DNA from: an uncultured Bacteroidales bacterium
GTDB taxonomy: Bacteria > Bacteroidota > Bacteroidia > Bacteroidales > Muribaculaceae
Direction of reading: 5' to 3'
Assembly (NCBI GenBank): GCA_902796035.1
Contig: CADBNR010000075.1
Location: forward strand, 1 to 35,063
Length of the DNA: 35,063 nt
The first letter of the stretch is position 1. The number at the start of each line of letters is the position of its first letter. The position numbers and the translations under genes are program-made. This document shows positions 27,207 through 34,878 of this stretch, one piece after another. Below the pieces are notes generated by a model that worked only from the letters and a program-made list of their open reading frames with translations, had not been told where the DNA came from and did no database searches.

Positions 27207-28445
27207 TTATGTCAATATCATCAGTCGTGTGCCGTCGTGAGTGGTCGTGGCATATAACGTCCGGTCTTCACCCTCCATAAGTCGGTATTTCTTTCGGAGC
27301 TCGGATGCGCTGACCGGGAAGCATGAGGATACGACACGACAGCGGCTTCCCTTCAGATCTTTAAGTTCCCTGCCTGAAGGCTGAGCCTTTATTATGGATA
27401 TACGTCCGGGAAAATCCAGATAAAGTGTGTCGGAGACAAAGAGACCTGAATCTTTGGACAGGGATTTCATATCGGGATATCGATCGCATATCTGTATCGC
27501 GCATTGCAGTTTGCGCATGGAGGCTCCGGCCTCATAGAAATACATGCCGGTGACGACTTGTTCCGGAGTGGCATAGTTTACCCGGGCCTGAACCGCATCG
27601 GTGCAGTTGAACCGGTACCGAACCGCCGGAGTGCCGGCGGGGAAAGAGTCAGGGCTATCGGCCAGGTCAATTACATGGATAAGAGGCCAGGATTGATTTG
27701 ACTGCATATCGGCCTCAGTCCCGGCGTCTAAATAAGGAGAATGGACTCCGAGATGGATCAGCACTTCCTTCACTTCGTTTTTGAAGGATAGGATAAAAAT
27801 TGAGCGTACATGGCGGAAATCGCGAAGAGTCTGGGTTATATCGAGAAGAGGAGATGCCTTGATCATCACATGGTCGGCGTGAGCTAATAGGAGATCCTGG
27901 TGCGCAATGACATCAGGCAACGAGTCGCGAAGAAGGAAGCAGCGGTTATTGCCATTGTCGCGTCGGGCCGGATCAACGAAAATACAGTCGTAATGTTCGC
28001 TGGTCTGCTGAAGATGAATCACGGAATCACCTTCCACTACAGTTATGTTATTGACGCCGAGAATGCCGGCATTGTGCCTCAACGCCCGAACCCGTTCGGG
28101 CTCAAGCTCGTATGCCGTCACTGTGTTTCCGTTAAGTGCTATCGTCATTGCATCTATGCCGAGTCCGGCTGTCATATCCAGTACGCGTCTGTCGTGTCCA
28201 ATCAGCTGTGCGTGGAACAGCGCCACATTCTGATTTGTGGCTTGCTCGGCGGACATAGACGTTCCGAACATGAAACCGGGATTCTTCAGGAACCATGTCA
28301 GCTTATTTGATGTTTTACGGCGCATTTCTATCTGCATGCATGCATCTTCCACGCTGAAAGGCATCGCTTTGCCGTGATACCGCAATCGCAGCGCATTCAC
28401 GTCCGAATGCGCATGATTCATTATAAACTGCTGTATTTCATTCAT
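27207..28445 (-). CDS. THUMP-like class I SAM-dependent methyltransferase
   Basis: This 412-residue protein has a Rossmann methyltransferase core: motif I RVLDMTAGLGIDAMTIAL (about 102-119), the acidic AYELEPERVRALRHNA, and YDCIFVDPARRD as the catalytic-site strand with DPAR. The C-terminal part (about 290-412) fits the THUMP-like domain found in Bacteroidota members, so the substrate is probably RNA. The target is unknown. The N-terminal FLKNPGFMFGTSMSAEQATNQNVALFHAQLI block is typical. Its start codon directly abuts the left arm of the large inverted-repeat leader, so initiation should be sensitive to that structure. It heads a two-gene transcript with the DUF2156 gene. Confidence 0.88.
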   Translation of the reverse strand: MNEIQQFIMNHAHSDVNALRLRYHGKAMPFSVEDACMQIEMRRKTSNKLTWFLKNPGFMFGTSMSAEQATNQNVALFHAQLIGHDRRVLDMTAGLGIDAMTIALNGNTVTAYELEPERVRALRHNAGILGVNNITVVEGDSVIHLQQTSEHYDCIFVDPARRDNGNNRCFLLRDSLPDVIAHQDLLLAHADHVMIKASPLLDITQTLRDFRHVRSIFILSFKNEVKEVLIHLGVHSPYLDAGTEADMQSNQSWPLIHVIDLADSPDSFPAGTPAVRYRFNCTDAVQARVNYATPEQVVTGMYFYEAGASMRKLQCAIQICDRYPDMKSLSKDSGLFVSDTLYLDFPGRISIIKAQPSGRELKDLKGSRCRVVSSCFPVSASELRKKYRLMEGEDRTLYATTTHDGTRLMILT

Positions 28446-28784
28446 TAGGCATCATTCCTTAAAAAATATAAACGCCAGGGCGGTGGATTTTCTAGGTAAT
28501 TTTGCCGATTGATGAGGGAGCAGCCTCGCGGCTGTGACCGAGGAGAACGGATAAATTAACCGAAAAGACACCGGGCAAGGCACAAATTAATTTGGAATTG
28601 TTAAAAAATTATCTATTAACAACTGGCATCTCCGAAAATGATATTACCATAGACTCGCAGCTGCACCTCATCTTTAGCCTTTTGACTCAGTCACATAGCC
28701 TGTTATGCTCCTGAGTCTGCAAGGCTAAATCTGAGGCACATCTGCGACCCTGGCGTATATATTTTTTTAAGGAACGATGCCTTA
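28446..28784 (-). ncRNA. Long structured leader / nested inverted-repeat element of unknown kind
   Basis: Outer arms 28445-28480 and 28748-28784 are complementary at 33 of 36 positions plus one extra A (both contain GCCAGGG/CCCTGGC and CCTTAAAA/TTTTAAGG). Just inside the right arm a second stem (28656-28690 with 28711-28746, 20 nt loop) pairs over about 35 bp. In the minus-strand RNA its internal differences are GU wobbles, two side-by-side G-A mismatches and a small bulge. Smaller hairpins are CAGCC-GCGA-GGCTG (minus strand, 28521-28534, a GNRA loop) and TTGTTAA/TTAACAA (28598-28622). A consensus promoter lies upstream and a start codon directly downstream, so it should be a 5' leader of the THUMP-like methyltransferase mRNA. 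It matches no RNA class I recognise. A MITE is the main alternative. Confidence 0.6.
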
Positions 28785-28811
28785 CACAAAGCATTGGGCC
28801 GATAATCGATA

Positions 28812-28842
28812 CAAATTTAACACATTTCCATTAAACTGCAAA
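28812..28842 (-). promoter_or_regulatory. Consensus promoter of the THUMP-like/DUF2156 operon
   Basis: On the minus strand TTTG (28839-28842), 19 bp, TAAATTTG (28812-28819) is a full match to the Bacteroidota consensus. The start would be near 28806, which gives a ~360 nt leader containing the inverted-repeat element. The -33 box overlaps the stem of the terminator of the upstream sigma-factor gene. Confidence 0.75.
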
Positions 28843-28866
28843 AGAGCATCATGGCGATGCTCTTTT
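28840..28866 (-). terminator. Terminator of the ECF sigma factor gene
   Basis: AAAAGAGCATC (28840-28850) pairs perfectly with GATGCTCTTTT (28856-28866) around a 5 nt loop. The minus-strand exit is within the TTTT of the stem, followed by GCAG. Confidence 0.75.
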
Positions 28867-34441: not shown

Positions 34442-34842
34442 GGGGCTGACTGGCTTTGACAGCGTGTAGAAGCGGTAGGTAAGCATGCAGAGCTTTGATG
34501 ACCAAGCTCTATAATCGCAAGATCATCGACCTATAATTGGCGAAAATAACAACTACGCTCTCGCTGCGTAATCTGAAGAACAGTAGGATACCTTAATTCT
34601 CCTACCAGGTAGGAGAACGAGACATCACTCCATTGCCCCGTTCCGAGACGTTTGGATAAAGTGGTGCTAAGAAATTCGGAAATAGGAAGAGCGGTGTCCC
34701 GATGCGCTTCCGAGATTAAGGGACTAAGGTCCGGATTGGCCGTCGTGAGCCTGTCCTGACACGAAAACCAATTCACAGACTAAGCATGTAGAAAGCTTAT
34801 TGATTCCACGTTTGGACGAGGGTTCAATCCCCTCCAGCTCCA
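34442..34842 (+). ncRNA. ssrA: Transfer-messenger RNA (tmRNA)
   Basis: tmRNA rescues stalled ribosomes by acting first as alanine tRNA and then as a short message. The 5' end GGGGCTG (34442-34448) pairs with CAGCTCC (34835-34841) as the acceptor stem, and the discriminator A is 34842. The CCA is not encoded. The T arm is GAGGG-TTCAATC-CCCTC. The tag frame starts at the resume codon GGC (34539) and reads GENNYALAA before TAA (34569-34571). This is the tag type known from Bacteroidales, ending in the usual ALAA degradation signal. The rest, up to the acceptor end, holds the pseudoknots. A promoter and a terminator flank it. Confidence 0.97.
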
Positions 34843-34878
34843 CTATGTACTTCCGAACTAATTCGGAAAATTCGAGAC

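What the first reader, a model, noticed from the sequence alone, without database searches (positions are those of the whole stretch)
28445..28842. Undescribed nested inverted-repeat leader ahead of a THUMP-like methyltransferase
A consensus promoter, then a ~360 nt leader, then an ATG touching the last base of a 36 bp stem. Inside is a second ~35 bp stem with GU wobbles and tandem G-A pairs, plus a GCGA tetraloop hairpin in the minus-strand sense. Folding would bury the start codon region, so the leader could switch translation of an RNA methyltransferase and the DUF2156 protein. No direct repeat flanks the arms, which argues mildly against a transposon. It resembles no riboswitch, RNase P, 6S or ribosomal leader that I know.
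Basis: partly seen in the sequence, partly recalled or inferred. Interest (0 to 1): 0.75.

Follow-up and report, generated by a model that had tools for sequence, protein, structure and literature searches.

The report
Mobile element with two RNA hairpins
The "leader" is a small hitch-hiking transposon that landed just in front of a bacterial gene; unexpectedly, its two inner hairpins carry the marks of being preserved as a folded single strand, probably RNA, and not just as DNA.

Summary
The structure is real, but it is not a dedicated leader. Window 28448-28781 is a 334-bp non-autonomous transposon (MITE): ~33-bp terminal inverted repeats (TIRs), a TTA target duplication (28445-28447, 28782-28784), and five full or near-full copies in the genome, this one included. 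A further, 1,259-bp copy has the same kind of ends around an intact IS5-family transposase. The window copy sits 2 nt upstream of the ATG of a THUMP-like methyltransferase gene, behind a Bacteroides-type promoter, so it is probably transcribed as a leader. None of 15 homologous loci with readable upstream DNA has it.

The surprise is inside. Each end carries a ~95-nt hairpin with tandem G.A pairs. Both covary strongly across copies (95.5% and 94.6% paired, no shuffle of 500 reaching the covariation score). Mismatches are strand-specific: G.U 136, A.C 33 in 94 divergent hairpins, while the outermost TIR bases are symmetric (33:30 in 85 elements). Both hairpins read inward. The core recurs in Bacteroidales elements with different TIRs, up to 106 hits per genome in this genus, without an Rfam match. 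The hairpins' job is unproven; an RNA guard or processing site is my best guess.

The parts
28445..28447 (.). left target-site duplication TTA (its first base pairs with the A of the minus-strand ATG)
   Evidence: read; at the matching register 39 of 148 elements have identical flanking trinucleotides, 36 of them TNA, against 8.6 for shuffled partners
28448..28480 (+). left terminal inverted repeat
28481..28573 (+). left hairpin, constrained sense plus strand; apical core 28516-28539 GGGAGC-AGCC-TCGC-GGCT-GTGACC with tandem G.A
28574..28654 (.). variable spacer, the place where the transposase gene sits in the 1,259-bp copy
28655..28747 (-). right hairpin, constrained sense minus strand; apical core 28689-28712
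28748..28781 (-). right terminal inverted repeat
28782..28784 (.). right target-site duplication TTA
28812..28842 (-). probable native promoter TTTG-N19-TAAATTTG of the methyltransferase gene, now separated from it by the element
   Evidence: read by eye; consensus recalled, not tested
27207..28445 (-). THUMP-like SAM methyltransferase gene downstream of the insertion (not part of the element)

Best explanation
Shown: the segment is a MITE of an IS5-family insertion sequence. It consists of TIR - inward-reading hairpin - spacer - inward-reading hairpin - TIR, flanked by a TTA duplication, and is the transposase-less form of an IS with the same architecture. Shown statistically: both hairpins have been maintained as folded single strands, each in its inward-reading sense, whereas the outermost TIR bases are not strand-specific. 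Inferred: the folded form is RNA, made when transcription enters the element from either side (here from the native promoter at about 28812-28842). Each entering transcript then carries a tandem-G.A hairpin at its 5' side, which most likely acts as an RNA-level guard or processing site (for a ribonuclease or an RNA-binding protein) that shields transposase expression or limits damage to the host messenger. At this locus the insertion turned a leader of about 20 nt into one of about 360 nt ending in a helix 2 nt before the AUG, which would probably lower translation of the methyltransferase. Confidence by step: MITE ~0.97; selection on single-stranded hairpins ~0.9; RNA rather than single-stranded DNA ~0.75; guard or processing role ~0.35.
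For: Copies: five full or near-full places in the own genome, this one included (78-87% identity for the four others), plus a transposase-bearing one; 21 of 61 genomes searched, all of the same genus, have DNA matches. Transposase: 261 aa, NCBIfam NF033580 IS5 at 142.2 bits against cutoff 110, between both hairpins and TIRs of a 1,259-bp copy flanked by TTA; seven further loci of the genus have broken or partial relatives of it between or beside the hairpins (L019, L020, L030, L045, L048, L049, L051). Target duplications of TNA type. Covariation: right hairpin 95.5% of 814 cells paired, 19 of 37 pairs with double changes, slid controls at most 43.5% paired; left hairpin 94.6% of 558 cells, 23 of 33 pairs, slid controls at most 49.6%; no shuffle of 500 reached the covariation score in either. 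Strand asymmetry: G.T 236, A.C 37 in 135 units; in 94 representatives differing at 20 or more of 80 arm positions, G.T 136, A.C 33, with 59 units G.T>A.C, 8 the reverse, 27 ties; isolated mismatches 254:25 where base composition alone predicts 1.38:1. Left and right hairpins separately 64:12 and 61:11; outer 10 nt of 85 single-hairpin elements 33:30. Single-hairpin elements between co-directional genes have the hairpin in the genes' sense 45 times, against it 25 times (p 0.02).
Against: No transcript was seen. G.T is tolerated more than A.C in DNA hairpins too (recalled), so the asymmetry fixes the strand better than the molecule. An inward hairpin at the end far from the transposase start does not fit a role in transposase mRNA alone. 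17 hairpins without partner or long stem gave only G.T 16, A.C 10. The orientation bias is weak, rests on crude ORF calls, and copies of one family are not independent; the upstream gene shows no bias (65:59). In 97 of 148 elements no TNA duplication was found in registers -1 to 4. No intrinsic terminator was found. The outer 13 bp of the window-type TIR agree at only 7 positions with the transposase-bearing copy, so that transposase may not be the one that moves this copy.
Confidence: 0.8

Rival explanations
1. The hairpins act as single-stranded DNA: strand-specific hairpins near the 5' end of each strand are recognised during transposition or replication, as hairpins are in IS200/IS605 elements or attC sites (recalled).
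For: Both hairpins lie on the 5' side of their strand, symmetric about the element; G.T and tandem G.A are also compatible with DNA hairpins (recalled).
Against: The transposase is a DDE enzyme of the IS5 family, not known to me to use single-stranded substrates; L050 and L052 carry a related transposase (36-37% identity) between inverted repeats with no such hairpin between them (L050 has a hairpin core just outside its repeat, in what looks like a separate neighbouring element); single-hairpin elements have the hairpin on one strand only.
Confidence: 0.2
2. The hairpins only regulate transposase expression in the parent IS (for example blocking translation of read-through transcripts, as the fold-back RNA of IS10 does, recalled); MITEs carry them passively.
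For: The right hairpin lies upstream of the transposase start, on its coding strand, in the 1,259-bp copy; the IS and the MITE share both hairpins.
Against: The left hairpin faces the wrong way for the transposase mRNA yet shows the same asymmetry (64:12); hairpins of mostly transposase-less copies remain well paired; a single-hairpin class exists.
Confidence: 0.25
3. An evolved cis-regulatory leader or riboswitch of the methyltransferase operon.
For: Position between a promoter-like site and the ATG; stable fold.
Against: Multi-copy at unrelated sites; absent upstream of 15 of 15 testable homologous loci; no Rfam match even at E up to 5; flanked by a target duplication.
Confidence: 0.04
4. 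The palindromes are maintained neutrally by quasi-palindrome (template-switch) correction, without selection.
For: Would produce paired changes in arms, TIRs included.
Against: Correction would remove mismatches of all kinds alike; instead G.A, G.U and purine-purine mismatches predominate on one strand. Tandem G.A at the core was required by the search pattern and is no evidence, but it recurs 2 bp below, where the pattern did not ask for it (G.A in 35 and A.G in 45 of 52).
Confidence: 0.04

Closest known systems
MITEs of Porphyromonas gingivalis (BrickBuilt, MITE239, MITE464/PgRS)
   Same: Bacteroidales, intergenic, TIRs like those of resident IS5-family elements, predicted long stem-loops (PMC4596501; abstract and passages read).
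   Different: BrickBuilt is built of 23-nt tandem repeats (none here), with target duplications that differ between copies, and a limited host range (P. gingivalis, homologues in P. gulae). The passages seen mention possible compensatory SNPs once, but no pairwise covariation or strand test. Whether MITE239 carries the tandem-G.A hairpin was not tested.
Caulobacter CIR elements
   Same: Two long arms, each an inverted repeat, joined by a linker (PMC2229807, passages read).
   Different: CIR has a GANTC motif at a loop. Here the TIRs also pair, the loops vary, and the conserved feature is tandem G.A. Different phylum (recalled); sequences were not compared.
Correia/NEMIS and ERIC elements
   Same: MITEs whose transcripts fold and are processed (RNase III for Correia/NEMIS, an RNase E site for ERIC, orientation-dependent; PMC10969869 and PMC2229807, passages read). 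This is the model for how this one may work.
   Different: No ribonuclease evidence here; different size and host (recalled); membership not claimed.
Pneumococcal BOX, RUP and SPRITE repeats
   Same: Small repeats with predicted RNA structure, co-transcribed with genes (PMC3049150, passages read).
   Different: Different modules and host; no tandem-G.A two-hairpin design in the passages seen.

Membership tests
MITE (non-autonomous transposon) | terminal inverted repeats | tested here: met
MITE (non-autonomous transposon) | target-site duplication | tested here: met
   TTA/TTA at the window copy; over the family 39 of 148 match at one register (36 TNA) against 8.6 for shuffled partners, 97 of 148 show no TNA duplication in registers -1 to 4
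MITE (non-autonomous transposon) | multi-copy, short, no transposase | tested here: met
MITE (non-autonomous transposon) | related autonomous IS in the same host | tested here: met
   1,259-bp copy, both hairpins and inner TIR shared; the outermost 13 bp agree at 7 positions only
IS5 family (parent element) | IS5-type DDE transposase above the curated cutoff | tested here: met
   NF033580 142.2 bits against 110
IS5 family (parent element) | short target duplication of TNA type (recalled) | tested here: met
   TTA at both ends of the 1,259-bp copy; family signal
cis-regulatory leader / riboswitch | conserved upstream of orthologous genes | tested here: not met
   0 of 15 testable homologous loci
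cis-regulatory leader / riboswitch | match to a known RNA family | tested here: not met
   no Rfam match in 28400-28850 at E up to 5; only a tRNA elsewhere in 17 other loci at gathering thresholds
BrickBuilt MITE | 23-nt tandem repeats | tested here: not met
   no tandem repeats
NEMIS/ERIC-like function | ribonuclease cleavage of transcripts carrying the element | not testable with these tools
   needs RNA data

The most novel reading that the evidence does not exclude
A mobile RNA module: one tandem-G.A hairpin (GA-RG-GA-stem-loop-GA-CY-GA) has spread through the Bacteroidales on several transposon backbones with different TIRs, in single-hairpin and two-hairpin forms, at tens to about a hundred hits per genome in this genus. 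It is kept folded in RNA because it binds a dedicated host or transposon factor, making it a genome-wide, orientation-sensitive RNA control or processing site and not merely transposon debris.
Probability: 0.35. Interest if true: 0.8.

Novelty: new variant of a known kind. Interest (0 to 1): 0.55.

Why it matters
The fold of a MITE can be a by-product of its inverted repeats. Here an internal control separates the two: pairing of the outer TIR is not strand-specific, pairing of the hairpins is. That makes 'do MITEs carry functional RNA?' testable at many similar sites per genome, in a large bacterial order. It also shows how an insertion between promoter and start codon can be mistaken for a riboswitch, and, since several copies lie at contig ends, such elements may contribute to breaks in draft genomes of this group.

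Tried and rejected
Conserved leader or riboswitch: rejected. Seven of the 16 homologous loci gave loose two-mismatch pattern hits; the covariance model found none of them (only the window's own two hairpins, and one partial hit at E 0.46) and blastn found no similarity. Intrinsic terminator: none found by the scan. No DNA match to the window element in the plasmid records nor to the IS copy in the phage records. Viral contigs: one partial relative of the transposase (59 residues, 46% identity), not followed. A pattern search of 295 genomes of the order was too loose: 207 of 295 had a match and reversed-pattern controls were often as high. A covariance model replaced it: 36 of 41 genomes of the genus, 11 of 295 over the order and 1 of 296 over the phylum, each count including the own genome. 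In some searches only 18 candidates per genome were scored with strict filters, so these are undercounts. Orientation toward neighbouring genes gave only a weak bias. A search for the autonomous partner of the window-type TIR found only known copies, solo copies of a 17-bp palindrome and partial pieces; the assembly is 91.9% complete.

Rows dropped before counts: units with arm score under 30 (176 to 135; 204 to 162, of which 17 without partner or long stem are reported apart); 24 of 136 motif places at contig edges, of 158 single elements, 30 at edges and 4 inside ORFs, 44 of 192 elements without a usable TIR alignment. The 'arms' include the two outer pairs of the core, which the pattern partly constrains. 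Near-identical hairpins were collapsed for alignment A1 (22 rows). For A2, 8 of 25 regex hits were left out: five chance matches, one right hairpin caught by the left-hairpin pattern, and two real but differently shaped hairpins (L087, L113). One of 52 units (L209, duplicated motif) was left out when A3 was aligned. One search failed; one search is the corrected script. One search printed its results and then failed on saving; one search repeats the job.

What is said about absence from print rests on ten searches of an open-access library only.

Full report
WHAT IS THERE. The reported structure exists. Arms 28447-28466/28763-28782 and 28461-28480/28748-28767 are each 95% complementary, and an inner stem spans 28655-28747. 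Folded as RNA, the minus strand of 28448-28781 gives -143.1 kcal/mol (100 dinucleotide shuffles: mean -82.2, z -13.1) and the plus strand -135.2 (z -10.5). The shape is a closed stem (TIR with TIR) carrying two long hairpins, left (28481-28573) and right (28655-28747). Contrary to the finding, a direct repeat flanks the element: TTA at 28445-28447 and 28782-28784.

IT IS A MOBILE ELEMENT. A search of the window's own genome finds five full or near-full places (this one; C70 87%, C61 80%, C2 78%, C24 79% identity) and one place, C43:2776-4024, whose two ends match but are separated by extra sequence. That copy is 1,259 bp long between TTA flanks, with both hairpins and TIRs around an open reading frame of 261 codons. 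The protein matches the IS5 transposase model NF033580 at 142.2 bits (cutoff 110) and Pfam DDE_Tnp_1. At seven loci in other genomes of the genus, broken or partial relatives of this transposase lie between or beside the same hairpins (L019, L020, L030, L045, L048, L049, L051). By DNA similarity 21 of 61 genomes have matches: 21 of the 37 genomes of the genus, own included, and 0 of 24 from other families. In 148 elements with detectable TIRs, the register one base inside the aligned end gives an identical flanking trinucleotide in 39 (36 of them TNA), against 8.6 with shuffled partners; 97 of 148 show no TNA duplication in registers -1 to 4. Single-hairpin elements have a median length of 194 bp and two-hairpin elements 336.5 bp.

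THIS COPY. It lies 2 nt upstream of the ATG of a minus-strand gene for a THUMP-like methyltransferase (Pfam Thump_like, Methyltransf_15), the duplication sharing the A of the ATG. A TTTG-N19-TAAATTTG site, fitting the Bacteroides promoter consensus as I recall it, lies just beyond the element at 28812-28842. The element is therefore probably transcribed as most of a leader of about 360 nt. In the predicted leader fold the AUG itself is open and the bases just upstream are paired. Homologues were found at 16 further places in 15 of 36 relatives (33-46% identity, orthology not proven). Of these 16 loci one had only 18 nt upstream; none of the other 15 has the element by pattern, covariance model or blastn (loose pattern hits in seven of them were not confirmed by the model).

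THE HAIRPINS COVARY. For 22 distinct right hairpins (sense: minus strand in the window) the named structure has 37 pairs: 95.5% of 814 cells are standard pairs (shuffles 83.4), 19 pairs have changes on both sides, 92 cells have double changes (shuffles 24), and no shuffle of 500 reached the covariation score (2 of 500 reached the number of pair types). Sliding the partner by 1-3 columns gives 31.9-43.5% paired. Two of the 37 pairs are unpaired in 12 of 22 sequences, where the letters form a second tandem G.A. For 17 left hairpins the RNAalifold structure has 33 pairs: 94.6% of 558 cells paired (shuffles 74.1), 23 pairs with double changes, no shuffle of 500 reaching any of the five measures, slid versions 37.6-49.6% paired. 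Both structures were derived from these sequences, which favours them on the cells-paired measure.

THE PAIRING IS STRAND-SPECIFIC. Scoring all non-Watson-Crick cells alike, in the sense that reads GGAG...TGAC, the arms of 135 hairpins show G.T 236, A.C 37, G.A/A.G 374, C.T/T.C 16; 102 units have more G.T than A.C, 3 the reverse, 30 tie. With near copies removed (94 representatives of 224), G.T is 136 and A.C 33, with 59 units against 8 and 27 ties. Isolated mismatches are 254 against 25, while base composition alone predicts 1.38:1. In two-hairpin elements the left hairpin (plus sense) gives 64:12 and the right (minus sense) 61:11, 30 hairpins each: both are constrained in the inward-reading sense. 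In 85 single-hairpin elements the outermost 10 nt, in the TIR, give G.T 33, A.C 30 and G.A 27, C.T 30; nearer the apex the asymmetry grows (inner part in all: G.T 249, A.C 100; G.A 413, C.T 89). A remainder of 17 hairpins gives only 16:10. So TIR pairing looks like DNA symmetry and hairpin pairing like selection on one single strand. A neutral template-switch origin does not predict this.

THE CORE. In 52 divergent units the core is R-G-[GA]-stem-loop-[GA]-C-Y, with the outer pair A-T in 27 and G-C in 20, and a second tandem G.A two pairs below in most (G.A 35, A.G 45 of 52) (the pattern fixed the first G.A, not the second). The same core sits in elements with different TIRs: in this genome there is also a single-hairpin family of 181-196 bp in five copies measured, TIR GAGTGTGTTTACTTTTAA and variants. 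The motif TCACATAGCCCGCTATGCTCC was found in 118 stretches of public genomes before the scan hit its limit; all 80 titles shown name Bacteroidales or groups of that order (the placement of some MAG names is recalled). A covariance model gave 32 hits in the own genome at E up to 0.01 and hits in 36 of 41 genomes of the genus, up to 106 per genome; over the order 11 of 295 and over the phylum 1 of 296, the own one, the last two being undercounts. Rfam has no match at the window region at E up to 5, and in 17 other loci only a tRNA.

HOW IT MAY WORK. Not shown. The inward sense at both ends fits transcripts entering from outside; the structure then appears near the 5' side of the invading RNA. 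Known MITEs offer a precedent in ribonuclease processing of their transcripts (Correia/NEMIS by RNase III; an RNase E site in ERIC, orientation-dependent; PMC10969869 and PMC2229807, passages read), and IS10 one for protection from read-through (recalled). Single-hairpin elements between co-directional genes have the hairpin in the sense of the genes 45 times and against it 25 times (p 0.02); the upstream gene alone shows no bias (65:59); 4 of 158 lie inside ORFs. This hints at a role or tolerance at messenger level but is weak. No T-run terminator was found. A single-stranded-DNA role in transposition remains possible because G.T and tandem G.A are also tolerated there.

NOVELTY. Membership: it meets the tested features of a MITE and its parent meets those of the IS5 family. 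It fails the defining feature of a conserved leader and of BrickBuilt. Ten searches of an open-access library brought up no description of these elements that I saw; I read abstracts and passages, not whole papers. The nearest are the P. gingivalis MITEs (PMC4596501) and, in layout, Caulobacter CIR (PMC2229807). New variant of a known kind, with a probable RNA-level property that deserves an experiment.

Noticed in passing
own genome C59:2308, C1:29786, C6:18567, C28:65761, C38:8725, C68:17605, C29:14052 and others (L313-L325): A 17-bp imperfect palindrome T[TA]AGGCATCGTTCCTTA, the outer end of the window-type TIR, occurs 16 times at up to 2 mismatches (0 in the reversed control); 5 belong to the copies C75, C70 and C61, the other 11 have no full element behind them, and some lie shortly before an ATG. 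It could be excision footprints, minimal elements or a regulator site.
   Followed up: partly
own genome C3, C26, C28, C32, C46, C49, C63, C69, C71, C74 (L189-L216): A second, single-hairpin MITE family of about 195 bp (TIR GAGTGTGTTTACTTTTAA, core GGGAGCGGTGCGGGCACCGTGACC and variants), several copies at contig ends, so it probably breaks the assembly.
   Followed up: partly
L236 (G244:C28:72579-72822): Two copies of the same kind of hairpin in direct tandem, 185 bp apart, in a distant family of the order.
   Followed up: no
own genome C24:2831-3131 (L013): A copy with the interior of the window type but the outer TIR of the transposase-bearing C43 type, suggesting that TIRs are exchanged between subfamilies (by eye).
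   Followed up: no
window 34442-34845: tmRNA gene (Rfam RF00023, 148.3 bits).
   Followed up: no
window 27207-28445: The methyltransferase has a partial match (100 residues, 53.2 bits) to the PADLOC model mad2, probably just a shared methyltransferase fold.
   Followed up: no
L238 (G055), L239 (G144), L233 (G241): Elements in distant families of the order share a variant core like GGAGCATACTNAAGTATGTGAC with other outer inverted repeats; G055 alone has about ten such places.
   Followed up: partly
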